Shown: in pieces, positions 15,898-45,555 of the stretch
Layout of the letters: each line of letters opens with the position of its first letter
How positions within the stretch are numbered: the stretch's first letter is position 1
Origin: a virus
Length of the DNA: 47,677 bases
IMG/VR virus record: IMGVR_UViG_3300025886_000044
Span: 1-47,677 of that record
Direction: 5' to 3' (one strand)
The notes under the pieces: model-generated
Seen by the model: the letters and a program-made list of their open reading frames with translations, nothing else
Told to the model about the DNA's origin: nothing
The model's database searches: none
Translations under genes and position numbers: made by a program

Positions 15898-16360
15898 AAT
15901 TTATATATGTAAAAAAATCTGCAATGTATGTGGTACTATGTACATTTGTAAAACACAACAAGACCCCTATAGGTATGAAGGCTCTGGTACTGAATGGAAA
16001 ATTCATAATCAAAAATGTGGAATAAATCATTCTACTAAAATTTTATTTTCATCAAGTAATAAACAAGAGGTAAAAGAGTTTTGTGAAAAATATGGTAAAG
16101 AAATTAATCCTAACTATTGGAAAACCCCAGAGTATGCTAATATGATTATGGAAGGTGGTGGTTATAATAATACTGGCGAGGCAAATCCTAATTATAAAAA
16201 CGGTAGGGCAGTAGGGTGGAGAAGTAATCCTAAAGTTCAAAAAGAAAATGATAGAATTAGAAATGCAATATATCATAAGGAAAATAGAGATAAAGAAAAT
16301 GCAAGAATGAGAGCTTATTACCATAGAAAAAAAAGAGAAAAATTAAATGTTGTTTCCTAA
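15887..16360 (+). CDS. Homing-endonuclease-like protein with NUMOD3-type motif
   Basis: The 157-aa protein has an N-terminal CNVCG zinc knuckle (about 12-16), then YRYEGSGTEWKIHNQKCG, which resembles the Y-x-GSG-x-x-WK-x-H-x-x-x-x-G block of phage GIY-YIG-like or related homing enzymes. GEANPNYKNGRAVGWRSNP at about 100-118 is a NUMOD3-type DNA-binding motif (G-x-x-NP-x-Y). The C-terminus is a basic helix. Such free-standing homing genes sit between core genes, and this one lies directly after gp46 and is joined to it by overlap. Catalytic residues are not certain, so nuclease activity is inferred only from the module pattern. Confidence 0.55.
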   Translation: MSVKIYICKKICNVCGTMYICKTQQDPYRYEGSGTEWKIHNQKCGINHSTKILFSSSNKQEVKEFCEKYGKEINPNYWKTPEYANMIMEGGGYNNTGEANPNYKNGRAVGWRSNPKVQKENDRIRNAIYHKENRDKENARMRAYYHRKKREKLNVVS

Positions 16361-16913
16361 AAAGAAATATCAGATAATATATGCAGACCCACCTTGGCTG
16401 TTTAGAGTTAGAAGTGAAAAGGGTAATAAAAGGTCTGCAACAAATCATTATGATGTAATGTCTATACAAGATATAAAAGATATGCCTGTTCAAGACATTG
16501 CAGATGAAAACTGTATACTGTTTATATGGGTAACATTTCCCAATCTGATAGAGGGTATAGATACAATAAAATCTTGGGGATTTACATATAAGACTTGTGC
16601 ATTCAATTGGGTAAAGAGAAATAAGAAAGCACCTAGTTGGTTTTGGGGTATGGGATATTGGACACGAAGTAATAGTGAACTATGTTTACTTGCAACAAAG
16701 GGTAGCCCAAAAAGATTGTCAAAGAGTATACATCAAATAGTAGATGACCCTATCAGAGAACATTCTAGAAAACCAGACTGCATAAGAAATAGAATAGTTG
16801 ATTTATGTGGAGATGTACCAAGAATAGAACTATTCGCAAGACAACAAACAAAAGGGTGGGATTACTTTGGTAATGAAATAAAACACTCAACATTAGAGGA
16901 ACACATGATATGA
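16347..16913 (+). CDS. MT-A70-family N6-adenine methyltransferase
   Basis: A 188-aa SAM-dependent methyltransferase. The catalytic motif is DPPW at 14-17 within YQIIYADPPWLFR, followed by FIWVTFPNLIEGIDTIKSWGFTYKTCAFNWVK and ELCLLATKG, all typical of MT-A70 proteins such as phage Dam-like or RNA m6A-type enzymes. RKPDCIRNRIVDLCGDVPRIELFARQQTKGWDYFGNE is the C-terminal part. It overlaps the preceding homing-like gene by 14 nt. A second and a third methylase-type gene lie at 33.7 and 36.9 kb. DNA adenine methylation of the phage genome is the simplest role; RNA as substrate cannot be excluded. Confidence 0.88.
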   Translation: MLFPKKKYQIIYADPPWLFRVRSEKGNKRSATNHYDVMSIQDIKDMPVQDIADENCILFIWVTFPNLIEGIDTIKSWGFTYKTCAFNWVKRNKKAPSWFWGMGYWTRSNSELCLLATKGSPKRLSKSIHQIVDDPIREHSRKPDCIRNRIVDLCGDVPRIELFARQQTKGWDYFGNEIKHSTLEEHMI

Positions 16914-16996: not shown

Positions 16997-17558
16997 GATG
17001 AATAAACTGATAGAATCAGATAGTCCATCACTAAAATTAAAGTTAAGTCCTTGTAGTAAGGATTTAAATCGTATGGAACTAAAAATGAAACTTGTAGAAC
17101 ATATGAAGTTTTATCAAGGTGTAGGATTATCTGCAAATCAAATAGGAATTATGGAAAGAGTGTTTGTAATGTATTCTGATGTAAAGAAGAAAGAAATCAT
17201 TGCGTGTTTTAATCCTAATATAGTTGCAGTATCACCAAAGAAAACTTTAATGGACGAAGGGTGTCTTACATTTCCTGGCCTATGGTTGAAGGTAAGTAGA
17301 CCAGAATCAATCGAAGTAGAGTATGAAGATGTGCATGGTGAGAAAACTAAGGTTTTTATGTATGGTTTAGAAGCAAGGGTGTTTCTACATGAATATGACC
17401 ACATGGAAGGTAAGAACTTCACAGATGGTGTATCTAAAGTAAAGTTGGATATGGCAAAGAAGAAACAAAAGAAAGCACTTATTAAAGCAGCTATATACAA
17501 AGAACAAGAAGAAGAACGAGAGAAACAAATGAAGTTTGGACAGAGTTTAATCGTATGA
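16989..17558 (+). CDS. def: Peptide deformylase
   Basis: Removes the formyl group from the N-terminal methionine of new proteins. The three family motifs are complete: GVGLSANQIG at 44-53 (consensus GxGLAAxQ), EGCLTFPG at 90-97 with metal ligand Cys92, and HEYDHMEG at 134-141 (HEXDH). The 189-aa protein has a C-terminal helical tail rich in K and E. Marine T4-like phages are known to carry short deformylases, used in cyanophages with photosystem proteins; here no such genes are seen. It overlaps the small membrane gene by 8 nt and the next gene by 4 nt. Confidence 0.93.
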   Translation: MAEMNKLIESDSPSLKLKLSPCSKDLNRMELKMKLVEHMKFYQGVGLSANQIGIMERVFVMYSDVKKKEIIACFNPNIVAVSPKKTLMDEGCLTFPGLWLKVSRPESIEVEYEDVHGEKTKVFMYGLEARVFLHEYDHMEGKNFTDGVSKVKLDMAKKKQKKALIKAAIYKEQEEEREKQMKFGQSLIV

Positions 17559-17980
17559 CCAATTATACAGACGCATCAAGAGCAAATAAAAGTGGTGAGG
17601 ATTTAGAAAATCGTTTGGAAACATTTTTAATAAAAGAAAATTTTCCATATAAAAGACAAGGTGGCCCAGGCAAAAAAGAAGTTGATTTTGAAATTATGCA
17701 CGATAATAGTATTATATACGCAGACTGTACTAACCAAAACACAGTTGGAACAGCTGAGGAAAAAATACCACATAAGTGTAGAAAATACTTTAGGTTATAC
17801 AAGTTTAGTGAAATTTTTATTATTAGAGGTAAACATAAAATTCATAAAGAAATTATACAAACTTTAAATGAAGATGAAAAGGCATTTGGTTATAAAACAA
17901 ATATCCTAACATTTGATGAATTTACTAACTATATTAAAGGAAATCAAAGTAAAGGTGCATTAGAGGGGTTTATGATATGA
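17555..17980 (+). CDS. Possible PD-(D/E)XK-like nuclease, divergent active site
   Basis: A 141-aa protein that I recognise only loosely. The order is an N-terminal helix with GEDLENRLETFLIKENF (about 14-30), then GGPGKKEVDFEIMHDNSIIYADCTNQNTVGTAEEKIPHKCRKY (about 36-78). This resembles restriction-enzyme-like folds, with VDFEI as the first acidic strand and YADCTNQ as the second, where a PD-D/ExK enzyme would have E-x-K. The Lys is replaced, so activity is unsure. It overlaps the deformylase and thyX genes by 4 nt each. It could be a small DNA nuclease or an unrelated conserved protein. Confidence 0.4.
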   Translation: MTNYTDASRANKSGEDLENRLETFLIKENFPYKRQGGPGKKEVDFEIMHDNSIIYADCTNQNTVGTAEEKIPHKCRKYFRLYKFSEIFIIRGKHKIHKEIIQTLNEDEKAFGYKTNILTFDEFTNYIKGNQSKGALEGFMI

Positions 17981-23241: not shown

Positions 23242-23252
23242 TATGTTATGGT
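23223..23252 (+). promoter_or_regulatory. Sigma70-type promoter before a 2OG oxygenase gene
   Basis: TTGACA (23223-23228) and TATGGT (23247-23252) at 18-nt spacing. The predicted start of transcription falls at or next to the ATG at 23260, so the mRNA would be leaderless. The -10 match is weaker than that of the other promoters. Confidence 0.5.
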
Positions 23253-23259
23253 TACTACT

Positions 23260-24771
23260 ATGAGTGAAAAAAAGAAAAAAGTAAAATTAAAACCAGAAGA
23301 ATTTGTTTCTCAAAATGATAAGATTGAGGAAGGTGTAGTTCATACTAGACTACGAAACAAAGATGGTCGTTGGCTTGATATGTTTGATTATGTTCCAGAA
23401 GGAATTGGTGTTGACAGATTAACTAATGATGGAACAAGAACAACAAAAAAAGAAGAAAAGATTTTTACTATCGGTGACCTAAATAATATGTTAGTAGATG
23501 GTAATAAAGTAAAACAACAGAAAATTGATTTAATGAAGGAGAGTGAAGTGAGTGAAGACGCATACAATCTGATGCCCAGAAAAGAATTTATCAACGCACA
23601 AAATAGAGCTGCAGAGATGAGTTCTCAACCACAACCTAAAACTGAAACAACAGAAAATACTACAATAGATTTAAAAGACGCAAATCAAAAGTATCATAAT
23701 CCACACGATTCAGATGAAGTGAATGAAAGGATTATGAATGACTTTGATAACTTTGTTTCAGAGAGTAAAGCAAGAACTAAAAATATGATGCTTGCAAAGA
23801 AAGCTCACCCAGAAGCAACTCCAGAAGAATTAAAAATTAAGTTTCTTGAAAAGAGAGCTCGTAAAATGAAAACACAATTTGACCAACAAGAATATGATAA
23901 ATTTGATAAAGAGGGTAAGTTAAATGAATTACCAAAAACAAACTCTTTTCACCCAGAATATATCAACCCACACGCAGAAAAAGAAAGAGAAGAAACTACA
24001 CAACCAGAACAACCACAACCACAAAGTGAAGATATATCTAAAGACGGTAGTACAAATCCAGGCGGTCTACAAGTTGCAATGCGTCCTAAACTTGCAGTAA
24101 ATATAATGAGAATACAAATACCAGATGATGTAATATCTGAAATCAATGAACATATCGATAACACAATCATACCTTCTAACAAAGATTATTCAAAAGGATT
24201 AGTTGGACAAATCAGTCACGACAAAAGGTCTGCACAATTACACTTCCCACATAATGATGAGGGTGTAGGTAAACAGTTCAGTGATGTTATCACAAGGCTA
24301 GGTAGTGAGTATATCGACAGAGTTGTTGGTATTAGGTCTGAGATTGAAATGCAATCTATGTGGACGGTTCACAGTTACGAAGGTGATTACAACCCAGTAC
24401 ACGACCACGGCACTAAAACACCTATGGGACTATCTTGTATTCTATACTTGAAAGTTCCACCACAGATTGAAAAGTTAGGTAACCCAGCAGAACACTTTGA
24501 AGGATTAAACGAATCATCTGGTGCAGTTGATGGATTTACTTATTTAACTTGGGGTGTAAATGGTATGAGAGATATAAACATACTAAGACCTATCACAGAA
24601 GAATATGTGAAACCAGAAGTTGGAACAATGTTAATGTTCCCAGCTTGGTTACGACATGGTGTAATGCCATTTTTTGGAGAAGGAGAAAGAAGAACATTCT
24701 CTTGTAACATGAACGTGTCACCAACAGAAAAATTAAGTGGTGACCACTACAGAAAAACTAGAGAGGAATAA
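23260..24771 (+). CDS. 2OG-Fe(II) oxygenase with long charged N-terminal extension
   Basis: A 503-aa protein. The first ~260 residues are low-complexity, rich in K, E, Q and N, with no recognised domain. The C-terminal ~240 residues are a 2OG oxygenase domain: MWTVHSYEGDYNPVHDHGTKTPMGLSCILYLK holds the iron-binding HDH region (about 381-383), and LMFPAWLRHGVMPFFGEGERRTFSCNMNV holds the distal His and the R-R-T that anchors 2OG. The start at 23260 is preferred over 23248 as it begins MSEKKKKVK. No clear Shine-Dalgarno precedes it. It is a paralogue of the gene at 25282, with the peroxiredoxin between. Confidence 0.85.
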   Translation: MSEKKKKVKLKPEEFVSQNDKIEEGVVHTRLRNKDGRWLDMFDYVPEGIGVDRLTNDGTRTTKKEEKIFTIGDLNNMLVDGNKVKQQKIDLMKESEVSEDAYNLMPRKEFINAQNRAAEMSSQPQPKTETTENTTIDLKDANQKYHNPHDSDEVNERIMNDFDNFVSESKARTKNMMLAKKAHPEATPEELKIKFLEKRARKMKTQFDQQEYDKFDKEGKLNELPKTNSFHPEYINPHAEKEREETTQPEQPQPQSEDISKDGSTNPGGLQVAMRPKLAVNIMRIQIPDDVISEINEHIDNTIIPSNKDYSKGLVGQISHDKRSAQLHFPHNDEGVGKQFSDVITRLGSEYIDRVVGIRSEIEMQSMWTVHSYEGDYNPVHDHGTKTPMGLSCILYLKVPPQIEKLGNPAEHFEGLNESSGAVDGFTYLTWGVNGMRDINILRPITEEYVKPEVGTMLMFPAWLRHGVMPFFGEGERRTFSCNMNVSPTEKLSGDHYRKTREE

Positions 24772-24773
24772 TT

Positions 24774-25295
24774 ATGGACGGTTTTAAAACACCAAATATT
24801 ACATTTAAAACTAGAGTGAAAGATGATGAAGGAAACTTTGATTGGAAAGATGTAACAACTGATGATTACTTCAAAGGTAAGAAAGTAATTTTATTTTCAT
24901 TGCCTGGCGCCTTTACACCAACTTGTTCAACATATCAATTACCAAACTTTGAAAAGATGTATGATGATTTTAAAGAGTTAGGTATTGATGCAATTTACTG
25001 TATGTCTGTGAATGATTCGTTTGTAATGAATGCATGGGCAAAAAACCAAGAATTAAAAAATGTAAAAGTTATACCAGATGGTTCTGGTGATTTTACTAGA
25101 CAAATGGGAATGATTGTCAAGAAAGATAATCTAGGTTTTGGATATCGTTCTTGGAGATATGCAGCTCTAATCAATGATGGTGTAGTTAAAAAGACTTGGG
25201 TAGAAGAAGGTAAAATGGATAATTGTCCAGATGACCCATATAGTGTAACTGACCCAGCATACATTTATAAGGATTTATTAGATGGGACTGAGTGA
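24774..25295 (+). CDS. Peroxiredoxin
   Basis: Reduces peroxides with a catalytic cysteine. The 173-aa protein has the FSLPGAFTPTCSTYQLP motif with peroxidatic Cys51, the family region MSVNDSFVMNAWAKNQ, and DGSGDFTRQMGM, typical of Prx5-type peroxiredoxins. It begins 2 nt after the oxygenase gene (TAATT-ATG) and overlaps the next by 14 nt. A thiol-dependent peroxidase between two 2OG oxygenases could protect iron enzymes or the host from oxidants made during infection; that link is inference. Confidence 0.92.
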   Translation: MDGFKTPNITFKTRVKDDEGNFDWKDVTTDDYFKGKKVILFSLPGAFTPTCSTYQLPNFEKMYDDFKELGIDAIYCMSVNDSFVMNAWAKNQELKNVKVIPDGSGDFTRQMGMIVKKDNLGFGYRSWRYAALINDGVVKKTWVEEGKMDNCPDDPYSVTDPAYIYKDLLDGTE

Positions 25296-26139
25296 TTTAT
25301 CAAAACAACTAGATGATAGAAAATCATCTAACAAAGAACAACCTTATTCAATGGGTAGACAAACTGTGAGAAAGGCTAGAACTGATTTATCAGAAAAAGA
25401 CTTTCAAGCAAATATCAAATTGAAAACTATGCCTGCTGTAAAATGGTTAGAAGTAGAGTTTCCAAAAGTATTTGTAGAAGAAATAAATGAATATATTGAT
25501 ACTGTCGTTACAGAAAAGAATGAAGATTATTCTAATCGACTAGTAGGTCAGTTGAAAACAGAAAAATCTGCACAACTTGACTTTCCATTGAAAGACCATG
25601 AAACTGGTGTGCAATTTAAACAAGTCTTAGAAAACTTGGGTAAATCGTTTATACAAAAACCTTATGGTAGAATGTCATCAGTAGAATGTTTTGAGGCTTG
25701 GACTGTTCACAGTTATGCTGGAGATTACAATCCTTTACACGACCATGGCGTTCACACTGGTTCTGGACTATCTTGTATATTCTACTTAAAAGTTCCAGAG
25801 TGTATCAGTAGTAAACCAGAAGTAGATGTTCCTAGTTTGGAAAATGCATCTGGTATTATTGATGGTTGGACACAGTTTTCTTGGGGTGCTCATACAATGA
25901 AAGATTTGTATCAACTAAGAGAACAGACACAACACGTTGTAAGACCAAGAGAAGGTCTACTAGTTATGTTTCCTTGTTGGTTACAACACATGGTATGGCC
26001 ATTCTCTGGTGAAGGAGAAAGAAGAACTTTATCTGCAAACTTTAACATACACGACTCACCAGAAGTTGGAAAACAGTTTGGTTCGATAGGTGCGAAAAGA
26101 GCAGTAGGAGATAACCCACTTAAAAACGTAAAGAGATAA
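25282..26139 (+). CDS. 2OG-Fe(II) oxygenase, paralogue of the 23.3 kb gene
   Basis: The 285-aa protein is an oxygenase domain with a short N-terminal region. It parallels the C-terminal half of the earlier gene segment for segment: AWTVHSYAGDYNPLHDHGVHTGSGLSCIFYLKVPE for the iron site, GWTQFSWGAHTMKDLYQL, and VMFPCWLQHMVWPFSGEGERRTLSANFNIH for the distal His and 2OG-binding Arg. The two probably arose by duplication with loss or gain of the N-terminal extension. Its start overlaps the peroxiredoxin end. The substrate is unknown. Confidence 0.87.
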   Translation: MGLSDLSKQLDDRKSSNKEQPYSMGRQTVRKARTDLSEKDFQANIKLKTMPAVKWLEVEFPKVFVEEINEYIDTVVTEKNEDYSNRLVGQLKTEKSAQLDFPLKDHETGVQFKQVLENLGKSFIQKPYGRMSSVECFEAWTVHSYAGDYNPLHDHGVHTGSGLSCIFYLKVPECISSKPEVDVPSLENASGIIDGWTQFSWGAHTMKDLYQLREQTQHVVRPREGLLVMFPCWLQHMVWPFSGEGERRTLSANFNIHDSPEVGKQFGSIGAKRAVGDNPLKNVKR

Positions 26140-28804: not shown

Positions 28805-29839
28805 GTGGATAAATTTTCCGACTTTATTTCAGAACAGAAGAATGAACAACCTTATAGGTTTGTAAATTTAATTCATCATACACCAGATGACCCTAATAAA
28901 ACTGGTGATTTGATGGTTGCAGAGGCAAAAAAATTAGGTATAAATGATACCTATCAGTTGAATGTTGATGGGGGGTATCTTACACTTAATGGAAAAGGTA
29001 GCCTAGTTGCTCATAACTTTTCAGTTGAAGAGGGAAAAGTTGTATCTGCGACCACGACTAAAAATTCAGATAAAAAAATAATACACGACAAAGAGGGTTT
29101 TGAAATTTCACCAGAGAACACTATTTGTTTTGTTAGAGTTGCAATAGGTAGAGGATATCACTTACTAGAACAATTAAGGTTACATGGTGTAAAAACTGTT
29201 AACTCAAGGTATTGTCATATGATATGTGATGATAAATGGTTTAATTATGTTGCATTAGAAAGAAGTGGTTTTAGACAACCCAAAACTGATTTAATATCAC
29301 ATATAGAAAATCTTGACACACCAATAAAAAATATTGGAGGCAAATATCCTATGATATTAAAGAGTGCGTCTGGTACACAGGGAGTTGGTGTTATTTTTAT
29401 AGACTCAAAACAAGCATTACTCTCAACTATGCAGTTAATTAATAAGATAGATGAAAATGTGAGAATGGTAATACAAGAGTATATAAAAACACCTTATGAT
29501 GTTAGAGCCATGGTTTTAAATGGTGAAGTGGTTGGACAATTAAAAAGACCAATCATTACTGGAGATTTTAGAAGTAATATAAGTCAGGGTAATGAACCAG
29601 AAAAAATAGAACTCACAGAATTAGAAAAGAGTGAGTGTATAAAAGTTGCAAAAGAAGTTGACGGAATGTGGGTAGGAGTAGATTTTATACCATCAAAGGA
29701 TAGAGAAAAAGAGTCACCATATTTTATAGAGGTAAATAGTTCGCCTGGCACCACACACATAAGTGAATTAAATAATGTTAACATTCACAAAAAAGTTATT
29801 GAAACATTTAAAAATAGAGAAAACTGGAGAAAACTATGA
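28805..29839 (+). CDS. RimK-like ATP-grasp ligase
   Basis: The 344-aa protein is an ATP-grasp enzyme of the RimK type, which adds amino acids to the C-terminus of a protein such as ribosomal S6, or ligates glutamate. Residues about 175-340 show the ATP-grasp features YPMILKSASGTQGVGVIFI, VIQEYIKTPYDVRAMVLNGEVVGQLKRP, DFRSNISQGNEPEKIEL, VGVDFIP and YFIEVNSSPGTTHI. The N-terminal ~125 residues form the preceding domain, ending in FVRVAIGRGYHLLEQL. The start is GTG, with agagga 8 nt upstream. It is placed between regA and a small gene, joined by overlap. The target protein is unknown. Confidence 0.88.
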   Translation: MDKFSDFISEQKNEQPYRFVNLIHHTPDDPNKTGDLMVAEAKKLGINDTYQLNVDGGYLTLNGKGSLVAHNFSVEEGKVVSATTTKNSDKKIIHDKEGFEISPENTICFVRVAIGRGYHLLEQLRLHGVKTVNSRYCHMICDDKWFNYVALERSGFRQPKTDLISHIENLDTPIKNIGGKYPMILKSASGTQGVGVIFIDSKQALLSTMQLINKIDENVRMVIQEYIKTPYDVRAMVLNGEVVGQLKRPIITGDFRSNISQGNEPEKIELTELEKSECIKVAKEVDGMWVGVDFIPSKDREKESPYFIEVNSSPGTTHISELNNVNIHKKVIETFKNRENWRKL

Positions 29840-30081: not shown

Positions 30082-31221
30082 ATGGACAAACAAGTAAAAG
30101 ATATACTACTTAAAGAAATCAAAAGACAAGAAACTACAGTAGAACTAATTGCAAGTGAAAACTTTGCAAGTCAAGCTGTAATGGATTTGTGTGGTTCAGT
30201 ATTCACAAACAAGTATGCAGAAGGATATCCAAGTAAGAGATATTACAATGGTTGTGAGTACATGGACGAAGTAGAACAACTTGCAATAGATGAGGTCAAA
30301 AAACTATATTACTGTTCTCATGCAAATGTTCAACCACATTGTGGTGCAAACGCAAACACAGCTGTCTATCAAGCATTTCTAAAACCAAACGATACTATTC
30401 TTGGAATGGACTTAGCATCTGGTGGACATTTAAGTCATGGTTCTAAACCAAACATATCTGGTAAGATATTTGATGCACATTACTATGGTGTCAATGATGA
30501 AGGTTGGTTAGACTATAATGTGATTGAAGACCAAGCAAAGAAACTTAAACCTAAAATGATTGTTGCTGGTGCAAGTGCATATTCCAGACTAATAGATTGG
30601 AGTAAGTTTAAAGTTATTGCAGATGAAGTCGGTGCAATACTGTTATGTGATATGGCACATTACTCTGGATTGATTGCTGGTGGACATTATACTAATCCAG
30701 TACATTATGCAGATGTAGTTACTTCTACCACACATAAAACATTACGAGGCCCAAGAGGTGGTATTATACTATGGAATAATGATGAGTACACAAAGAAACT
30801 AAACTCTGCGATATTTCCCGGCACTCAAGGTGGCCCACTAATGAATATGATTGCGTCTAAAGCACAAGCATTCAAAGAAGCAAATACCACAGACTTTATA
30901 CAATACATCAAACAAGTCATAGATAACGCACAAGTTATGAGTGAAGTGTTTATGGATAATGGATTTAATGTATTGACTGGTGGTACAGATAGTCACTTGA
31001 TGTTGGTTGATTTAAGTGATAAGAAATACTCTGGTAGAGAAGCTGCAGATTTACTAGAAGATAATGGAATAACTGTAAACAAAAATGGAATACCAAATGA
31101 CCCTAGAAGTTTTGTAGAAACATCTGGTATTCGAATAGGTACAGCTGCAGAAACAACCAGAGGTCATGGTGCAGATTGGTTCAGAGATTTGACCAAGAGG
31201 ATAATTGATATACTTTCTTGA
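30082..31221 (+). CDS. glyA: Serine hydroxymethyltransferase
   Basis: PLP enzyme converting serine and tetrahydrofolate to glycine and methylene-tetrahydrofolate. The 379-aa protein has the family markers: ELIASENFASQAVMDLCGSVFTNKYAEGYPSKRYY near the N-terminus, and STTHKTLRGPRGG with PLP-binding Lys219. The histidine-rich QPHCGANANTAVYQAFL and MAHYSGLIAGG are also typical. It is shorter than bacterial SHMT (about 415 aa), as is common in marine phages. The product feeds ThyX. The start directly abuts the preceding stop. Confidence 0.95.
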   Translation: MDKQVKDILLKEIKRQETTVELIASENFASQAVMDLCGSVFTNKYAEGYPSKRYYNGCEYMDEVEQLAIDEVKKLYYCSHANVQPHCGANANTAVYQAFLKPNDTILGMDLASGGHLSHGSKPNISGKIFDAHYYGVNDEGWLDYNVIEDQAKKLKPKMIVAGASAYSRLIDWSKFKVIADEVGAILLCDMAHYSGLIAGGHYTNPVHYADVVTSTTHKTLRGPRGGIILWNNDEYTKKLNSAIFPGTQGGPLMNMIASKAQAFKEANTTDFIQYIKQVIDNAQVMSEVFMDNGFNVLTGGTDSHLMLVDLSDKKYSGREAADLLEDNGITVNKNGIPNDPRSFVETSGIRIGTAAETTRGHGADWFRDLTKRIIDILS

Positions 31222-31252: not shown

Positions 31253-33751
31253 ATGAAGTTTTATACAAATGTCGTTAGATACGGTAACAACCTTCTTATA
31301 AGAGAAGTCAATAATGGTGAGAGGTCGAATCGTAAAGTAAAGTATTCGCCTACCATGTATATGAGAGTTGGTAAACCGACAAGCCATAAAAGTCTTGATG
31401 GTCGATTTGTGACTCCTGTCAAACATGAAACTATGAAAGAATGTAACGAATGGTTACAATCTTATGAAAATCAAAAACATCTTATATTTGGTAATACACT
31501 TCACGCATATAGCTATATTGCAGATACTTATCCTAATACAGTAAACTGGGATATTGACCAGATACTTATTGTTACTATGGATATTGAGGTTCAATGTGAA
31601 AATGGTTTTCCTAATCCTAGAGATGCAGCTGAACCTTTACTTTCTATTACAATCAAAAATCATCAGAACAAACACATTATGGTTTGGGGTATCGGTGAAT
31701 TTAAAAACAATCGTGATGATGTTGGTTATGTAGAGTGTAGAGATGAAAAACATCTTATACAAGAGTTTCTAAAGTTTTGGGAGAAGAACCAACCAGATGT
31801 GATTACGGGCTGGAATACTGAGTTCTTTGATATTCCTTATTTACACAATCGTATTGTAAAACTATATGATGACAAAGAAGTAAAAAGACTATCGCCTTGG
31901 CGTAATGTATATTCCAAAGAAGTTTACATGATGGGTAGAAATCATCAAGTGATTGATATTCAAGGTGTGTCTGCATTAGATTACTTTGACCTATATCGTA
32001 AGTTTACTTATACAAACCAAGAGAAATATACTCTTGACCATATTGCATTTGTAGAACTTGGTGAAAGAAAAGAAGGTAATCCTTATGATACATTTAGTGA
32101 GTGGTATCAGAAAGACTATCAATCCTTTATCGAATACAATATCACAGATGTGGAGTTAGTGGACAAACTTGAAGATAAGATGAAATTAATCGAGCTTGCA
32201 CTCACTATGGCTTATGATTCTAAAACAAACTATATGGACGTTCTTGGTACAACAAAGTATTGGGATATTATTATTTACAACTATCTCAGAAAGAAAAACA
32301 TTGTTGTCCCTCAAAGAATCAGTTCATCTAAATCTGAGAAGTTTGAGGGTGCTTATGTGAAAGACCCTATCGTGGGTATGCATAAGTGGGTGATGTCATT
32401 TGACTTGAACTCTCTATATCCACATCTGATTATGCAATATAATATATCAACAGAAACACTTGTATCACAAAACAAAGTTCCTAATATGAAGGTAGATAAA
32501 CTACTACATAAAGAGTTTGATACAAGTAAGTTAGATAAGAATCATACTATGACACCTAACGGTGCAATATTCAGAACTGACAAGAAAGGTTTTCTTCCAC
32601 AACTTATGGAAGATATGTATAATACCAGAACTGAATACAAAAGAAAGATGTTGGAGGCTAAACAAGAATATGAAAACACTAAAGATAAAAAACTACTCAA
32701 AGACATTTCAAAATACAACAATATTCAAATGGCTAAAAAGATTTCACTCAACTCTGCGTATGGTGCTATCGGTAATGCATACTTTAGGTATTTCAATTTA
32801 CTCATTGCTGAAGGTATTACTACGAGTGGTCAGTTATCTATTCGCTGGATTGAGTTTGCTCTTAATAGGTATCTCAATAAGACTTTGGGTACTACTGATG
32901 AAGATTTCGTGGTTGCAAGTGATACCGATTCGGTGTACATTACATTTGACAGACTTGTTAATAAAGTGTTTAAATCACAGTCAGATGTTGGAAAGATTAC
33001 CGACTTCTTGGACACTATCGCTAAGGAAAAGATTGAACCTTTTATTGATAAAAGTTATCAAGATTTGTCTGAATATCTCAACTGTCATTCCCAAAGAATG
33101 AATATGAAACGAGAAGTGATTGCAGACAAAGCAATCTGGACTGCAAAGAAAAGATACATTCTTAATGCGTGGGATATCGAAGGTGTTCGATACAAAGAAC
33201 CACAACTTAAACTTATGGGTATCGAGGCTATCAAAAGTTCTACTCCTGCTCCTTGTCGTAAGAAACTCAAAGAAGGTATAAAAATAATTATGTCTGGTGA
33301 TGAGAAAATGCTAAATACATTCATACAAGATTTTAGGAAAGAGTTTATGGATTTACCACCAGAAGAAATTGCATATCCAAGAAGTGTGAATGGATTAAGT
33401 AAATGGTCTAATAGTGCAAACCTATTCAACAAGGGTGCTCCTATTCATGTGAAGGGTGCAATACTGTATAATCATCTTGTCAAACAAAAGAAACTAGGAC
33501 ACAAGTATCCATTTATTCAAGAGGGTGATAAGATTAAGTTTCTCAATCTAAAACTACCAAACAAGTATCAATGTACAGCCATGACCTTTATAACTAAGTT
33601 ACCAAAAGAACTTGACATACACTCTCTAATAGACTATAATGTACAGTATGAAAAGAGTTTTGTTGAACCCCTTAAATTTATTACAGATAAAATATCGTGG
33701 AATATAGATAAATCGTTTGGAACACAGGGTAACTTATTGGATTTCTTATGA
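31253..33751 (+). CDS. 43: DNA polymerase gp43 (family B)
   Basis: Replicative polymerase with 3'-5' exonuclease. The 832-aa length is near T4 gp43 (898 aa). Exo motifs are MDIEVQ (about 106-111), TGWNTEFFDIPYLHNR (about 185-200) and YNITDVELVDKLE (about 295-307). Polymerase motifs are SFDLNSLYPHLI (about 383-394, motif A), ISLNSAYGAIGN (about 500-511, motif B) and SDTDSVYITF (about 558-567, motif C). The C-terminus FGTQGNLLDFL resembles the clamp-binding tail. It is intact, with no intron or split. It overlaps the next gene by 4 nt. Confidence 0.97.
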   Translation: MKFYTNVVRYGNNLLIREVNNGERSNRKVKYSPTMYMRVGKPTSHKSLDGRFVTPVKHETMKECNEWLQSYENQKHLIFGNTLHAYSYIADTYPNTVNWDIDQILIVTMDIEVQCENGFPNPRDAAEPLLSITIKNHQNKHIMVWGIGEFKNNRDDVGYVECRDEKHLIQEFLKFWEKNQPDVITGWNTEFFDIPYLHNRIVKLYDDKEVKRLSPWRNVYSKEVYMMGRNHQVIDIQGVSALDYFDLYRKFTYTNQEKYTLDHIAFVELGERKEGNPYDTFSEWYQKDYQSFIEYNITDVELVDKLEDKMKLIELALTMAYDSKTNYMDVLGTTKYWDIIIYNYLRKKNIVVPQRISSSKSEKFEGAYVKDPIVGMHKWVMSFDLNSLYPHLIMQYNISTETLVSQNKVPNMKVDKLLHKEFDTSKLDKNHTMTPNGAIFRTDKKGFLPQLMEDMYNTRTEYKRKMLEAKQEYENTKDKKLLKDISKYNNIQMAKKISLNSAYGAIGNAYFRYFNLLIAEGITTSGQLSIRWIEFALNRYLNKTLGTTDEDFVVASDTDSVYITFDRLVNKVFKSQSDVGKITDFLDTIAKEKIEPFIDKSYQDLSEYLNCHSQRMNMKREVIADKAIWTAKKRYILNAWDIEGVRYKEPQLKLMGIEAIKSSTPAPCRKKLKEGIKIIMSGDEKMLNTFIQDFRKEFMDLPPEEIAYPRSVNGLSKWSNSANLFNKGAPIHVKGAILYNHLVKQKKLGHKYPFIQEGDKIKFLNLKLPNKYQCTAMTFITKLPKELDIHSLIDYNVQYEKSFVEPLKFITDKISWNIDKSFGTQGNLLDFL

Positions 33752-35013
33752 TGAATGAAGAGTTATATCAAATACTAAAACAAAGTTGTAATTCAAATGG
33801 ATTACCAGTGATGAATAGAAGTCAATTTGTTGCAACAGTTGATAAGTTTGGTAAAGAGGATTTTCGTACAACTCTTGCAGAATATATCACAAAAGAAAAA
33901 CCACCATTTCCTTTTCACGAGTTTGACCAGAAAAGAGTAGTTGATACTTTTCACAAATTAATAAAAGCTGACTTTACTGATTTTTTTACAACATCAAAGA
34001 ATGATAGAGTGATTGAAAAGTATGATGATTACAAATATCCATATAGTAAATATGGATTAGGTGTTATTGAAGCATCACCTAAATTTAATTATGTTAGTGA
34101 TTCTTTTATGAATGACTTACGACTAGCGTGTGGTTCTTATGGATATAAATCACCTGTCCAAAGATGGAATGATTGTGATAATCTTTGGGGTGCGTTTGGG
34201 CCTATCTTTCGTGGTGTGAATGATACGCAAGAGTTGAATGGTAGAATTTTTATAATGGCTTTCAGACTTGGAACTTATATTGCAACACAGTTTAAACCTA
34301 TTGTTGCAAAAGTCATATATGAAATGTCTGATGCAAAAACTGTATTAGATACCTCTATGGGTTGGGGTGATAGACTTACTGCGTTTTATGCCTCTAGTGC
34401 AACACATTATATTGGTTGTGACCCAAATCCAAGTACATTTGCAAGATATAAAAAAATGATAAAGTTTTATGATAAATTAACAGGTGGTAAAAAGACAACA
34501 CAAATTTACAACTGTGGTGCAGAAGACTTGCCTTGGGACGAGATTAAAAATGTTGACTGTGCGTTTACAAGTCCTCCATATTTTTCTACAGAGAGATACA
34601 ATGAGGGTGGTGATAAACAAGAGCTGCAGTCTTGGTTCAAGTTCAATGAATATGAAAAATGGAGAGATGATTTTTATTTACCTGTGTCACAAAAGACATT
34701 TAATTCCTTAAGTGATAAAGGTGTAATGTTGATAAACATACTTGACCCAAAGATAAAGAGTAAAAGGTATCGTTCTGGTGATGAACTTGTGGATATGTTG
34801 AAAGATAATTTTATGGGTCAGATAGGAATGAGAATAATGCAAAGACCTCAAGGAGCTGCTGTATTCAAAGATGAGGAAGGTAACTTTGATAAACAAAAGA
34901 TGGACGAGTTTATGAATAAGATATACATAGAAAATGTCTGGTACTTTGCAAAGAATAAAAATACGGATATATTTAAACATACTAAAAGAGGAACATTAGA
35001 GGACTTTTTGTAA
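33748..35013 (+). CDS. SAM-dependent DNA methyltransferase with TSPPY motif
   Basis: A 421-aa protein. The SAM-binding motif I VLDTSMGWGDRLTAFYASSATHYIGCDPNP is near 198-227, and the catalytic motif IV FTSPPYFS near 273-280. The order motif I before IV suggests an N6-adenine or N4-cytosine enzyme. The N-terminal ~190 residues carry a further domain that I do not recognise, beginning MNEELYQILKQSC. The start overlaps the end of gp43 by 4 nt and its stop overlaps the next start by 1 nt. It opens a run of four overlapping genes (to 37631) that look like one modification cassette. Confidence 0.82.
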   Translation: MMNEELYQILKQSCNSNGLPVMNRSQFVATVDKFGKEDFRTTLAEYITKEKPPFPFHEFDQKRVVDTFHKLIKADFTDFFTTSKNDRVIEKYDDYKYPYSKYGLGVIEASPKFNYVSDSFMNDLRLACGSYGYKSPVQRWNDCDNLWGAFGPIFRGVNDTQELNGRIFIMAFRLGTYIATQFKPIVAKVIYEMSDAKTVLDTSMGWGDRLTAFYASSATHYIGCDPNPSTFARYKKMIKFYDKLTGGKKTTQIYNCGAEDLPWDEIKNVDCAFTSPPYFSTERYNEGGDKQELQSWFKFNEYEKWRDDFYLPVSQKTFNSLSDKGVMLINILDPKIKSKRYRSGDELVDMLKDNFMGQIGMRIMQRPQGAAVFKDEEGNFDKQKMDEFMNKIYIENVWYFAKNKNTDIFKHTKRGTLEDFL

Positions 35014-36137
35014 TGAAAACTTGGCAAAAAGGTATAGAGTTAGAAAAATTATTAGAGTTGGAAAAAATGTGGATAGGTTATAATGAAAAAACACTTTCTC
35101 CATTCTTACAAATGAAGAAAAATAGTATTGCAAGTGTAATTGACGCAAAAATGTATGATTATACAGAGGATTACGCAATATATACGAAGATTTATAAAGT
35201 TAAATCGAAAATAAAAATGTATTCTGGGTATGATATAATTATTAGTTCGATTGAGCCTGGTGAAAGAGTTATTAATAAAATTTCCTACAAAGATAAAAAT
35301 AAGATAATAGAAAAAATAAAATCTTACGAAGAAAATACTTTTTTATATGTTCACGAAGAAGATGATGAAGATAAAAATATAGTTGATATTTGTGGTTTCA
35401 AAAAAATTGGTGTAAAAATAAATACATTCGGAGATGTTCTTGGTGTATATTTTAAAGGAAAACCTACAATATTTGGTGAGAGAGAGTTTCCTGAACTTAA
35501 TAAAATTATTAAAGAAGAGCATTATATTTTAAAAAAATTTAATGTACCAGATTTTTCTAAACTTTGTAATTCTATTTTGTTAAAACTAAATGAAAAAAAT
35601 ATACACTTTACAAATCATTATTCTAATTATAATAAAGGAAAATCTTGGAGTGCAATTTCTTTGAGAGGATACACAGAGGATTTTAGTTTTATAACAAAAC
35701 CAGATGAAATGAATAAAAAATGGAAGAATGAAAATAAAGATATAGAATTTAAATTAAGAGATACAGTATTAAGAAAGGATTTTCCAGAAGTTGAAATTAT
35801 AATCAAAAATTTTAAATCAGTGCCACATAGAATAAGATTTATGAATTTAAAATCTAAAGGTGGTGAATTACAAAGACATACAGACCAAGTTGACCCAGAT
35901 GCAGGCATAATGAATGGTAAGTTAATGAGAGTTCATATTCCAATAGTAACTAATAATAATGTAATATTTGAACAGTGGGATTGTAATGGTAAAAATAAAA
36001 AGGTAAATATGAAAGTTGGAGAGAGTTGGTATCTTGATGTAAGAAAACCACATAGAGCTGTAAACAACGGAGATAGTGTTAGAACTCATCTAGTAATTGA
36101 TTTTGAATCAAATGAGTATTTAAGAGGTTTATTATGA
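35013..36137 (+). CDS. Asp/Asn beta-hydroxylase-like oxygenase with N-terminal extra domain
   Basis: A 374-aa protein. The C-terminal part (about 275-370) has GGELQRHTDQVDP with iron ligands H-T-D, MRVHIPIVTNNNVIFEQW, and ESWYLDVRKPHRAVNNGDSVRTHLVIDF with the distal His and Arg. This is the pattern of aspartyl/asparaginyl beta-hydroxylase-type 2OG oxygenases. The N-terminal ~170 residues include NTFLYVHEEDDEDKNIVDICGFKKIGVKINTFGDVLGVYFKGK, which is reminiscent of an acetyltransferase (GNAT) C-terminal part; that reading is weak. The base composition is more AT-rich than its neighbours. Stop and start overlap the adjoining genes. Confidence 0.7.
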   Translation: MKTWQKGIELEKLLELEKMWIGYNEKTLSPFLQMKKNSIASVIDAKMYDYTEDYAIYTKIYKVKSKIKMYSGYDIIISSIEPGERVINKISYKDKNKIIEKIKSYEENTFLYVHEEDDEDKNIVDICGFKKIGVKINTFGDVLGVYFKGKPTIFGEREFPELNKIIKEEHYILKKFNVPDFSKLCNSILLKLNEKNIHFTNHYSNYNKGKSWSAISLRGYTEDFSFITKPDEMNKKWKNENKDIEFKLRDTVLRKDFPEVEIIIKNFKSVPHRIRFMNLKSKGGELQRHTDQVDPDAGIMNGKLMRVHIPIVTNNNVIFEQWDCNGKNKKVNMKVGESWYLDVRKPHRAVNNGDSVRTHLVIDFESNEYLRGLL

Positions 36138-36973
36138 ATTTAACACCAATAGAAAAACACAATGAAATTTTATTTAAAAGAGATGATTTATTTTGTCCTT
36201 ACGGTGATGTTAATGGTGGAAAGGTAAGACAGACAATTAATCTTATTAAAAAACATAAACCAAAGGGTGTGATAGCTGCTGTATCTGTTCATTCACCTAC
36301 TGGGCCAGTCATTAGTAGAGTTGCAAAATATTATAATATTCCTTGTATTATTGCAGTTGGTGGTACAAAGAAAGAAAATTTAGATAAGTTACCTATGATG
36401 AAATTAACAAAAAAATGGGGTGGAGATATACGAATAGTCGCTGGACATGGAATGAAAAATGTAGTATCAAGTAGAATGAAAACTATACAAAAAGAGGTGG
36501 GATATTTTGATATGGATTTTAGTAAACACATTTTTAGTGACGGTGATTTGATGTTTGATACTAATTCATATCAAGTGCAAAATATTCCAAATGAATTAGA
36601 TGCGTTAGTTGTTTCTTTAGGTGTTGGTATTCAGTTTTCTTCTATACTAAAAGGTATAAAAAGATATAATAAAAAAGTAAAAAGAATTATAGGTGTTCAA
36701 GTTGGGCCTGATAGAAGAAAACTTATAGACTCATATTTGAATCAAAATCCACTATATGAAGAAAGATTTAATATTAATTATGAGCTACATCAAGATACAA
36801 CTGCGTATAGTAAAGTTGTTGAGTATAAAATAAACAATTTTTATTTAGATGATATATACGAAGGTAAGGCATACAAGTGGTTATTAAATAATTTAGACTT
36901 AAATAAAAAAATATTATTTTGGTGTATAGGAAGGAGATTAAGAAATGATGAAGTGGAATCAATTTGTAAATGA
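36134..36973 (+). CDS. PLP-dependent enzyme, ACC deaminase/desulfhydrase-like
   Basis: The 279-aa protein belongs to fold-type II PLP enzymes (tryptophan synthase beta superfamily). ILFKRDDLFCPYGDVNGGKVRQ with likely PLP-binding Lys30 is the equivalent of KRDDL...GGNKxRK in ACC deaminase and D-cysteine desulfhydrase. VSVHSPTGPVISRVAKYYNIPCIIAVGG and LVVSLGVGIQFSSILKG resemble substrate-loop and phosphate-binding parts. It overlaps the hydroxylase gene by 4 nt and the methylase-like gene by 29 nt. Amino acid or base side-chain chemistry is possible. It is shorter than typical family members (about 330 aa). Confidence 0.8.
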   Translation: MNLTPIEKHNEILFKRDDLFCPYGDVNGGKVRQTINLIKKHKPKGVIAAVSVHSPTGPVISRVAKYYNIPCIIAVGGTKKENLDKLPMMKLTKKWGGDIRIVAGHGMKNVVSSRMKTIQKEVGYFDMDFSKHIFSDGDLMFDTNSYQVQNIPNELDALVVSLGVGIQFSSILKGIKRYNKKVKRIIGVQVGPDRRKLIDSYLNQNPLYEERFNINYELHQDTTAYSKVVEYKINNFYLDDIYEGKAYKWLLNNLDLNKKILFWCIGRRLRNDEVESICK

Positions 36974-37631
36974 TGATGCGTTTAATGTATTTCCTAAGAT
37001 AGATGATAATTGTGTAGATTTAACTTTTACAAGTTTACCAGATATATCTCAAACACCATTTCAAAAAGATATAGCAAAATATCAAGAGTTACAAAATAAT
37101 GCTTGTGATGAAATGTCTAGAATTACAAAACCAAATGGATTTGTTGTCATATCACAAACAGATAGAAAAATAAACGGAGAAATATTAACAAATCATATAA
37201 CTTATCATAATGCAATGACAAGAAATGGATTTAAGTTAAAAGACTATAAGATAATGGTTAGAAATTATCCAGTGGATAAAAAAGATATGTATTACTTTAA
37301 TTATCAACATTGTTTAATATTTACAAAGAAAGGTACTATAAAAAGAAATGGAGAGTTTCTTAAAAATATATTAGTATATGATACGGTAAAAATGAAAAAT
37401 ATGAAAGGCCCACTACAATTATATGTATGGAATGAAAAATTTATAAAATTAATGATTAATTATTTATCAAAAGATAATGACAAAATTTTTGACCCATTTG
37501 CAGGCTCTGGTATTGTACCATATATTGCAAAAAATTTAAATAGACAATATCTTGGTTGTGAAATAAGTGAAGAAGTTTATAATGAATCTATTATGAAAAA
37601 AAATAATACACTAGATGAATTTATGACTTGA
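36945..37631 (+). CDS. Methyltransferase-like protein with altered catalytic motif
   Basis: A 228-aa protein. Near the N-terminus VDLTFTSLPDISQ (29-33: TSLPD) stands where class beta DNA methylases have the catalytic DPPY/SPPY motif. The C-terminal KIFDPFAGSGIVPYIAKNLNRQYLGCEIS (about 179-207) is an intact SAM-binding motif I. So the order (catalytic motif first, SAM motif last) and the general fold fit class beta DNA methylases, but the catalytic Pro-Pro-Tyr is replaced. It may act on a different chemistry or substrate. The ribosome-binding site is gaaggaga. Its TGA stop forms part of the following TTGACA promoter box. Confidence 0.75.
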   Translation: MMKWNQFVNDDAFNVFPKIDDNCVDLTFTSLPDISQTPFQKDIAKYQELQNNACDEMSRITKPNGFVVISQTDRKINGEILTNHITYHNAMTRNGFKLKDYKIMVRNYPVDKKDMYYFNYQHCLIFTKKGTIKRNGEFLKNILVYDTVKMKNMKGPLQLYVWNEKFIKLMINYLSKDNDKIFDPFAGSGIVPYIAKNLNRQYLGCEISEEVYNESIMKKNNTLDEFMT

Positions 37632-44006: not shown

Positions 44007-45020
44007 ATGAGTGATTTTTTAAAAGATATTATTAAGACAACTGGAAATGAATATGCAGCTTTAGTTGCAGACGGAGTAGAGGCTGGTGATGTAGATAGTT
44101 TTATTGACACAGGTTCATATGTGTTTAACGCATTGTTATCTGGTTCAATACATGGTGGATTACCAGCAAACAAAATAACTGCATTAGCTGGTGAGAGTGC
44201 AACAGGTAAGACATTCTTTCTAATGGGTATTGTTAAAAACTTCTTAGATGCAAATCCAAAGAGTGGTGTTGTATACTTTGAAAGTGAAAGTGCAATTACA
44301 AAACAGATGGTGATTGATAGAGGTATAGACCCAGAGAGAATGGTTATCGTTCCAGTTACAACGGTTCAAGAGTTTAGAACACAGTCATTAAGAATATTAG
44401 ATAGATATATGCAAGAAGATGTAAATGTTAGAAGACCTTTATTCTTATGTTTAGATTCGTTAGGTATGTTATCTACAACTAAAGAAGTAGAAGATACAGC
44501 AGACGGTAAAGAAACAAGAGATATGACTAGAGCTCAAGTATTGAAGGCTGCATTCAGAGTGTTGACTTTGAAACTTGGTAAAGCAAAAGTTCCTATGGTT
44601 GTAACGAATCATACTTACGACAGTATGGGTTCAATGTTTCCAACAAAAGAAATGGGTGGTGGTTCTGGATTGAAGTATGCAGCCTCATCTATTATATTCT
44701 TATCCAAGAAAAAAGAGAAAGATGGTACAGAAGTTGTTGGTAATATTGTTCATTGTAAGAACCATAAATCAAGATTGACTATAGAGAACAAGATGGTTGA
44801 TGTAAGATTATCCTATGAAAAAGGTCTTGACAAATACTATGGATTGTTAGATATTGCAGAGAAGTATAACATATTCAAGAAGGTGTCAACAAGATACGAA
44901 CTACCAGATGGTTCTAAACAATATGGTAAATCTATTATGAGTGAACCAAAGAAATACTTTACAGAAGATATAATGAAACAAATCGAAGAAGCTGTAGGTA
45001 AAGAATTTAAGTATGGATAA
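44007..45020 (+). CDS. uvsX: RecA-like recombinase UvsX
   Basis: Strand-exchange protein of recombination-dependent replication. The 337-aa product has Walker [12 protein letters not shown] at 60-70, [21 protein letters not shown], Walker [12 protein letters not shown], and [31 protein letters not shown], all typical of T4 UvsX (391 aa). Partners UvsY and gp46/47 are in this window. It overlaps the next gene by 8 nt. Confidence 0.95.
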
Positions 45021-45555
45021 TTATATAAAGTGTTATGATAACGTAGTAACAGATGAGTTTTGTGAAAATGCAGTCACAAAATTTGAAGGTGATTATACTC
45101 AACACGAACAATGGCCAAAAGATAATATATTTTTCACTCAAATCAATTTACAAAAAAGTGGTATGTGGGACGAAGAACAAACACATTTAAAAAAAGTGTT
45201 TGAAAAATATATCAAGTTATATAAAAAAGAATGTGAGATTGATGGTAACCAGTGGCCTAATAGTTTTGGATTAGAACCTTTTAGAATAAAAAGATACTTA
45301 CCTGATGGACAAAACTTTCCACCACACGTTGATGTAAACACAAAAAACAACTGTAGTAGATTTCTTGCTTTCTTTCTATACTTGACAAACAACAAAGAAG
45401 GTAGTACAATATTTACTAAACATGAAGTGAAATCATCTTGTACGAAGGGTTCACTTTTAATATTTCCACCGAACTGGTTGTATTTACATTCTGGTGAAAA
45501 GTGTGTGGAAACAAACAAATATATTATAGGTAGTTATGCTCATTACATTAAATAA
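45013..45555 (+). CDS. 2OG-Fe(II) oxygenase, P4H-like
   Basis: A 180-aa protein with [24 protein letters not shown] holding the H105-x-D107 iron motif, [16 protein letters not shown] with distal His159, and [13 protein letters not shown], where K169 stands where the family often has Arg. It is a single-domain dioxygenase with unknown substrate. It overlaps uvsX by 8 nt and the next oxygenase gene by 20 nt. Confidence 0.82.

What the first reader, a model, noticed from the sequence alone, without database searches (positions are those of the whole stretch)
33748..37631. Four-gene cassette for possible DNA hypermodification
Four overlapping genes run directly from the DNA polymerase: an SPPY methylase, a 2OG hydroxylase-like fusion, a fold-type II PLP enzyme and a methylase-like protein with an altered catalytic motif. 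Base hypermodification pathways in phages often combine methylase-like, oxygenase and PLP-type enzymes. The exact combination here is not one I recognise. An amino-acid-type group might be built or hydroxylated on a base. No product can be named.
Basis: partly seen in the sequence, partly recalled or inferred. Interest (0 to 1): 0.75.

Follow-up and report, generated by a model that had tools for sequence, protein, structure and literature searches.

The report
Phage DNA base-tailoring gene cassette
Four overlapping genes behind the DNA polymerase of an ocean phage look like a mix-and-match kit for building an unusual chemical group on its DNA letters, probably to hide from bacterial defences; its parts recur together in many ocean phages in combinations I found no description of, and the product is unknown.

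Summary
The four genes are real: on one strand, overlapping, directly behind DNA polymerase (33748-37631). g1 is an amino-methyltransferase with an invariant SPPYF motif. g2 fuses a GNAT-like domain (weakly supported) to a 2OG amino-acid hydroxylase with an intact iron site. g3 is a fold-type II PLP enzyme. g4 is a methylase-like protein in which the catalytic aromatic is replaced by a conserved Asp.

g3 and g4 almost always travel together (59/66 g4 loci). g2 travels with a PLP enzyme and an SPPY methylase (28/37 testable loci) at two genome sites. g3's family contains PLP enzymes of phages ViI and M6, which have amino-acid-derived thymine modifications. g2's only full-length structural match, LilMcDreamy gp4, sits beside an amino acid:DNA transferase. 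Cultured relatives carry other DNA-modification enzymes in the same slot. g1 is often alone there and ends in the polymerase's tail, probably a sliding-clamp-binding motif.

Known C5-pyrimidine handle enzymes were not found in 22 (fragmentary) cassette records, nor in the complete genome of Vincenzo, which has a related methylase-PLP pair. Best reading: a modular hypermodification system starting from a base amino group, with PLP, hydroxylase and acyltransferase steps tailoring an amino-acid-like adduct. No chemistry was tested.

The parts
31253..33751 (+). DNA polymerase (T4 gp43-type), upstream anchor; C-terminus GNLLDFL
33748..35013 (+). g1 (MTsp): amino-methyltransferase-fold enzyme, motif I D-x-S-x-G-x-G-D-R then FTSPPYFxxExY
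   Evidence: AF2 pLDDT 84, generic class I MTase fold
34570..34581 (+). g1 catalytic motif SPPY (residues 275-278); invariant apart from gaps in 159 aligned family members
34990..35010 (+). g1 C-terminal tail GTLEDFL, resembling the polymerase tail; probable gp45 sliding-clamp-binding motif
   Evidence: 70/82 g1-like, 47/65 polymerases, 14/1229 unlabelled ORFs; clamp tails of gp43/gp55/gp33 described in PMC2988020
35013..36137 (+). g2 (HYD): N-terminal GNAT-like domain + C-terminal Asp_Arg_Hydrox 2OG oxygenase
35877..35885 (+). g2 Fe ligands H289-x-D291 (third ligand H347 at 36051-36053, 2OG Arg357 at 36081-36083)
   Evidence: H289 and D291 82/82, H347 81/82, R357 81/82
36134..36973 (+). g3: fold-type II PLP enzyme of a phage family that includes ViI Vi01_182, Vincenzo gp2 and, more distantly, M6 gp52
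36221..36223 (+). g3 predicted PLP-binding Lys30 (NGGK); 91/93 family members, gap in the other two
36945..37631 (+). g4 (MT4): beta-order DNA amino-methylase relative (closest solved: DpnA) with motif IV altered to TSLPDISQ
37029..37052 (+). g4 altered motif IV TSLPDISQ (residues 29-36)
   Evidence: D33 63/66, P32 66/66, position 31 variable
37491..37511 (+). g4 SAM-binding motif I DPFAGSG, retained

Best explanation
This is a modular phage DNA base-hypermodification cassette in the post-polymerase modification slot of a T4-like marine phage. Proposed working: (1) g1, tethered to the sliding clamp by its polymerase-like C-terminal tail, acts on newly replicated DNA and uses its intact SPPY site to transfer a SAM-derived group to an exocyclic base amine (N4 of cytosine is the most likely target, N6 of adenine the alternative). 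(2) g3 uses PLP chemistry to make or reshape an amino-acid-like adduct, as its relatives are thought to do on DNA-bound amino acids in ViI and M6. (3) g2 hydroxylates that adduct with its C-terminal 2OG oxygenase and may acylate its amine with its N-terminal GNAT-like domain. (4) g4, a methylase fold that keeps SAM binding but has Asp in place of the base-stacking aromatic, is either a DNA-recognition partner or transfers its group to a different acceptor. The result would be a bulky base that blocks host nucleases. Shown here: gene anatomy, intact active sites of g1-g3, conserved alteration of g4, co-inheritance, and kinship with hypermodification enzymes. Inferred: that DNA is the substrate, target base, step order, product, clamp binding and biological role.
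For: Module: 59/66 g4-seeded loci have the PLP gene within 3.5 kb; of 37 g2-seeded loci with enough flank, 30 have a fold-II PLP, 33 an SPPY methylase, 28 both. The same genes occur beside gp46/47 and beside gp43/44/62, and a PLP-methylase pair, with ParB fused to the methylase, occurs in Vincenzo and soil phages. A second PLP clade, closer to M6 gp52, fills the g3 place in 42-43 loci. Kinship: the marine g3 profile scores ViI Vi01_182 114 bits, Vincenzo gp2 93, M6 gp52 33, against 12 or less for E. coli CysK, DcyD and TdcB. M6 gp51-gp52-gp53 = ADDT, PLP, radical SAM; Vi01 carries 5-NeOmdU (PMC11721090) and M6-type phages 5-NedU (PMC11946847). g2's only full-length structural hit (E 2e-27, TM about 0.8; next hits cover the oxygenase domain) is LilMcDreamy gp4, next to ADDT and a Tet/JBP-like oxygenase. 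Oxygenase-domain matches are amino-acid hydroxylases: Pro cis-4-hydroxylase, a nucleoside-antibiotic beta-hydroxylase, AspH. Slot: Melnitz has C5-methylase + Tet_JBP and Mosig an MT-A70 methylase right after polymerase. Clamp-like tail on g1. Catalytic residues intact in g1, g2, g3. No C5-MTase, ADDT, TS-type or Tet_JBP match over cut-off in 22 cassette records (positive controls 126-129).
Against: No nucleoside analysis. g1 usually stands alone (47/65), so it may be an ordinary DNA methylase with the others hitch-hiking. The cassette records are fragments, so a missing handle enzyme may lie elsewhere in the genome; the Tet_JBP negative rests on a weak first look. M6 gp52 is only a distant relative (33 bits). 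The GNAT assignment rests on profile linkage to small GNAT-like genes, not a direct Pfam hit. The clamp-tail reading is by resemblance. That the ViI and M6 PLP enzymes act on DNA-bound amino acids is from my own knowledge; those papers were not readable here. Related phages inflate co-occurrence counts.
Confidence: 0.66

Rival explanations
1. g1 (and perhaps g4) is an ordinary anti-restriction m4C/m6A methyltransferase; g2 and g3 are unrelated auxiliary metabolic genes (amino-acid catabolism, protein hydroxylation) that share the slot.
For: g1-type genes stand alone in 47 of 65 testable loci; Pfam calls g1 and g4 plain N6_N4_Mtase and g3 plain PALP; Foldseek gives only generic MTase matches for g1.
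Against: g2, g3 and g4 rarely occur without one another or an SPPY methylase, at two unrelated genome places; g3 groups with ViI/M6/Vincenzo enzymes, not with catabolic E. coli ones; LilMcDreamy context of g2.
Confidence: 0.17
2. The cassette modifies a protein or RNA (for example a ribosomal or clamp protein) rather than DNA: amino-methyltransferases include protein-Gln methylases, Asp_Arg hydroxylases act on proteins, GNATs acylate proteins.
For: AspH and prolyl hydroxylase are among the structural neighbours of g2; RimK ATP-grasp and SHMT genes lie upstream.
Against: ParB fusions with the methylase, polymerase-type tail on g1, PLP relatives in DNA-hypermodifying phages, post-polymerase slot holding C5-methylase/TET or MT-A70 in relatives. 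A RimK gene is also present in Mosig and Melnitz, whose records gave no hit to the cassette proteins.
Confidence: 0.09
3. The genes act on a 5-hydroxymethyl-pyrimidine handle made by enzymes elsewhere in the phage genome (the classical ViI/M6 route); g1 and g4 merely methylate or target.
For: g3 and g2 relatives occur in such pathways; contigs are incomplete.
Against: No PF00303, PF00145, Tet_JBP or ADDT over cut-off in 22 records or in the complete Vincenzo genome, which has the methylase-PLP pair; the thymidylate synthase in the window matches a phage thymidylate synthase family (phrog_85) but not PF00303.
Confidence: 0.14

Closest known systems
Thymidine hypermodification of ViI (5-NeOmdU) and M6 (5-NedU)
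   Same: Same fold-II PLP family (Vi01_182 114 bits; M6 gp52 33 bits); amino-acid-derived group on a base; modular gene sets
   Different: Those start from 5-hydroxymethyl-dU with a TS-type enzyme, a kinase and ADDT; no TS-type enzyme or ADDT was found here; amino-methyltransferase folds take their place
LilMcDreamy genes 2-4 (Tet_JBP-like, ADDT, GNAT-like/hydroxylase)
   Same: gp4 is the full-length structural counterpart of g2 (E 2e-27)
   Different: Tet/JBP + ADDT instead of SPPY methylase + PLP; the modification itself has not been described in anything I could read
Vincenzo genes 1-2 (ParB-SPPY-type methylase fusion + PLP)
   Same: Methylase and PLP overlap head to tail, homologous to the g1 and g3 families
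   Different: CPPY instead of SPPY, ParB fusion, no g2 or g4 next to them
CmoA/CmoX/CmoY 5-glycylcarboxymethylcytosine (PMC12783734)
   Same: A methyltransferase fold uses a SAM derivative to put a handle on a base, then amino-acid chemistry; marine T4-like phage
   Different: C5-cytosine MTase with SPPC, CmoA and amide ligase; that paper reports finding no N6/N4 carboxymethyltransferase; no CmoA over cut-off here
Beta-class amino-methyltransferases (DpnA, MboIIA)
   Same: g4 sequence order and best solved relatives
   Different: SPPY/DPPY replaced by xPD[IL]SQ
Mu Mom adenine modification
   Same: GNAT-type enzyme acting on a base
   Different: g2's N-terminal domain does not align with Mom (hhalign probability 2%)

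Membership tests
ViI/M6-type thymidine hypermodification pathway | Fold-II PLP enzyme of the same family | tested here: met
   114 bits to Vi01_182, 33 bits to M6 gp52
ViI/M6-type thymidine hypermodification pathway | ADDT amino acid:DNA transferase present | tested here: not met
   (0 of 22 records over cut-off); controls positive in M6 and LilMcDreamy
ViI/M6-type thymidine hypermodification pathway | TS-type deoxyuridylate hydroxymethylase (PF00303) | tested here: not met
   (0 of 22; records are fragments); control positive in M6
ViI/M6-type thymidine hypermodification pathway | Modified thymidine in virion DNA | not testable with these tools
   needs LC-MS
DNA N4/N6 amino-methyltransferase (g1) | [SDN]PP[YFW] motif plus SAM-binding motif | tested here: met
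   SPPY 157/159 with 2 gaps, motif I D and R invariant
DNA N4/N6 amino-methyltransferase (g4) | [SDN]PP[YFW] catalytic motif | tested here: not met
   xPD in 63/66; therefore not filed as a methyltransferase by activity
2OG/Fe(II) Asp_Arg hydroxylase (g2 C-terminal domain) | HxD...H iron triad and 2OG-binding Arg | tested here: met
   H289, D291, H347, R357; fold by AF2/Foldseek
GNAT acyltransferase (g2 N-terminal domain) | GNAT fold / acetyl-CoA site | tested here: inconclusive
   no Pfam hit; profile match to stand-alone genes with weak Acetyltransf_1 hits
CmoA/CmoX/CmoY carboxymethylcytosine system | CmoA Cx-SAM synthase and C5-MTase | tested here: not met
   none over cut-off in 22 records
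T4 sliding-clamp client (g1) | Hydrophobic-acidic C-terminal clamp-binding motif | tested here: met
   (sequence resemblance only; binding not tested)

The most novel reading that the evidence does not exclude
An exocyclic-amine route to DNA hypermodification: a clamp-tethered amino-methyltransferase-fold enzyme transfers a SAM-derived amino-acid unit (for example 3-amino-3-carboxypropyl) or another carbon handle directly to cytosine N4 or adenine N6, and PLP, GNAT-like and 2OG enzymes then sculpt it. This would be a base-modification chemistry different from all C5-pyrimidine, 7-deazaguanine and Mom systems.
Probability: 0.22. Interest if true: 0.85.

Novelty: new variant of a known kind. Interest (0 to 1): 0.63.

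Why it matters
If right, it adds a hypermodification route that lacks the known handle enzymes in the records searched, carried in combinatorial form by hundreds of marine phage contigs (188 PLP, 259 hydroxylase and at least 594 SPPY-methylase relatives found), with close variants in culturable mycobacteriophages. It would bear on phage escape from restriction and CRISPR, could bias sequencing of such phages, and offers new DNA-editing enzymes. The clamp-like tail suggests a simple way in which such modification could be coupled to replication.

Tried and rejected
RimK ATP-grasp gene (28805-29839) as part of the cassette: rejected as specific, since Mosig and Melnitz have a RimK beside polymerase while their records gave no hit to the cassette proteins, and only 8 of 22 cassette records have one. 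Mom homology of g2: rejected. CmoA/Cx-SAM route: not found over cut-off (weak sub-threshold hits in two records). PLP as a plain threonine dehydratase or ACC deaminase: disfavoured; best solved relative ACC deaminase only 36 bits, E. coli enzymes 12 bits or less. Single-protein scans with g2 alone found nothing and with g3 alone only L001; alignments were needed. g4 tail NTLDEFMT as a clamp motif: not conserved in the family, left out. Literature searches found no paper on this combination, but Lee 2018/2022 and Iyer 2013 were not in the library.

Full report
Observation. One search confirms four ORFs on the + strand with 1- to 29-base overlaps, directly behind DNA polymerase: g1 33748-35013, g2 35013-36137, g3 36134-36973, g4 36945-37631. 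The window is a 47,677-base IMG/VR virus record with T4-type clamp loader, clamp, gp46/47, gp55 and UvsX. Pfam: g1 and g4 N6_N4_Mtase, g2 Asp_Arg_Hydrox (C-terminal half only), g3 PALP. A sister contig, L001, carries polymerase, g1, an extra 205-aa gene, g2, g3, g4 at 70/71/85/63% identity.

Active sites. Over all relatives gathered, g1 keeps T-S-P-P-Y-F-x-x-E-x-Y (157 of 159 at SPPY, two gaps) and an unusual motif I, D-x-S-x-G-x-G-[DG]-R, with D and R invariant. g2 keeps H289, D291, H347 and R357, the iron and 2-oxoglutarate ligands. g3 keeps the PLP lysine K30 (91 of 93, two gaps). g4 has Asp at the aromatic position in 63 of 66 while the second motif residue varies (P, L, C, V, M, I); its SAM motif DPFAGSG is kept. 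So g1-g3 look catalytically able, and g4 is altered in a selected, not decayed, way. TSPPY is the form I know as typical of cytosine-N4 methylases; a g1 relative in Vibrio phage 2.058 is annotated so.

Structures. AF2 of g2 (pLDDT 91): Foldseek against PDB gives L-proline cis-4-hydroxylase, a beta-hydroxylase of a nucleoside-antibiotic pathway and AspH, i.e. mostly amino-acid and amino-acyl hydroxylases. Against viral models, the only full-length match is LilMcDreamy gp4 (E 2e-27, TM about 0.8). The N-terminal half has no Pfam hit but aligns with small GNAT-like genes found in sister cassettes; GNAT is therefore probable, not proven. g1 (pLDDT 84) gives only generic class I methyltransferase matches.

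Do the genes travel together? A profile of g3 found 188 viral contigs. A g2 profile found 259, g4 66, g1 at least 594. From g4, 59 of 66 loci have the PLP gene within 3.5 kb. From g2, of 37 loci with enough flank, 30 have a fold-II PLP gene, 33 an SPPY methylase and 28 both; in many of these the PLP is a second, more M6-like clade. Orders vary: methylase-HYD-PLP-g4, HYD-PLP-g4, g4-PLP-methylase, HYD-PLPb-methylase. The set occurs beside gp46/47 and beside gp43/44/62, two separate places in T4-like genomes. From g1, 18 of 65 testable loci have PLP, HYD or g4 next to the methylase and 47 have none. The picture is a core methylase with interchangeable tailoring genes, not an obligate quartet. Relatedness of the contigs inflates these counts.

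Links to known DNA hypermodification. The marine g3 profile scores 114 bits with ViI Vi01_182, 93 with Vincenzo gp2 and 33 with M6 gp52, but 11.7, 10.5 and 5.5 with E. coli CysK, DcyD and TdcB. M6 gp51-gp52-gp53 are ADDT, this PLP type and a radical SAM enzyme; Vi01 DNA carries 5-NeOmdU (PMC11721090) and M6-type phages 5-NedU (PMC11946847). That PLP enzymes there decarboxylate DNA-bound amino acids is from my knowledge of Lee et al. 2018/2022, not readable here. LilMcDreamy gp4, the g2 counterpart, follows a Tet/JBP-like and an ADDT gene. Vincenzo gp1-gp2 are a ParB-methylase fusion overlapping a PLP gene; its complete genome shows no ADDT, Tet_JBP, TS-type or C5-methylase match. In gut/soil phages the PLP gene follows a radical SAM gene and ParB genes and precedes terminase.

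The slot. In cultured relatives the place right after polymerase holds other DNA-modification enzymes: a C5-methylase and a Tet_JBP oxygenase in Melnitz, an MT-A70 methylase in Mosig. The window also has an MT-A70-like methylase elsewhere (16347-16913, phrog_359).

Clamp-like tail. g1 ends GTLEDFL and the polymerase GNLLDFL. This tail is on 70 of 82 g1-like proteins, 47 of 65 polymerases and 14 of 1229 unlabelled ORFs, and on 0 of 76 distant methylases. T4 gp43, gp55 and gp33 bind the gp45 clamp through similar, interchangeable hydrophobic-acidic C-termini (PMC2988020). I infer that g1 rides the clamp and acts on new DNA.

What is missing. In 22 cassette records no C5-MTase, TS-type, Tet_JBP, ADDT or CmoA gene passes its cut-off; positive controls rang where expected. 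The records are fragments, so this is suggestive only, but with Vincenzo it favours a start at the base's amino group through the SPPY methylase. The carboxymethylcytosine paper reports finding no N6/N4 carboxymethyltransferase (PMC12783734), so no such system is on record in what I could read.

Mechanism and verdict. Most likely: g1 puts a SAM-derived group on cytosine N4 (or adenine N6) of new DNA; g3 builds or reshapes an amino-acid-like adduct; g2 hydroxylates and perhaps acylates it; g4 helps recognition or transfers to another acceptor. DNA modification as such I put near 0.8, amino-acid-type hypermodification near 0.65, aminocarboxypropyl or similar direct transfer near 0.2. It is a new variant of a known kind.

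Noticed in passing
window 17555-17980: 141-aa protein with nuclease-like residues (KKEVDFEI...DCTNQ) and a clamp-like tail GALEGFMI; no PHROG match.
   Followed up: partly
window 16347-16913: Further DNA methylase (DPPW, phrog_359), MT-A70-like, away from the cassette; Mosig carries an MT-A70 gene right after polymerase.
   Followed up: partly
window 30082-31221: Phage serine hydroxymethyltransferase (PF00464, E=1e-148) just upstream of polymerase; could supply one-carbon units or glycine, link to the cassette untested.
   Followed up: no
L064, L069, L077, L080 and others: Gut/soil phage cassette ParB - radical SAM (SPL-like) - g3-family PLP - TerS - TerL, repeated in about 18 contigs, without ADDT in the two large records tested.
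   Followed up: partly
L002:855-1787: LilMcDreamy gp2 is annotated as queuine tRNA-ribosyltransferase but matches Tet_JBP (weakly) instead; gp3 is an ADDT.
   Followed up: partly
L235:4010-6194: Cultured Methylophilales phage Melnitz-3 has a C5-cytosine methylase next to a Tet_JBP oxygenase right after polymerase, a candidate 5mC-oxidation system.
   Followed up: no
L100, L109, L115, L125, L146: Stand-alone GNAT-like gene homologous to the N-terminal half of g2 sits downstream of the PLP gene.
   Followed up: partly
L001:4873-5490: Extra 205-aa gene of unknown family between g1 and g2, ending in the clamp-like tail GPLEDFF; absent from the window.
   Followed up: no
window 23248-24771, 25282-26139, 45013-45555: Three further 2OG-Fe(II) oxygenases (phrog_81, phrog_61).
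   Followed up: no
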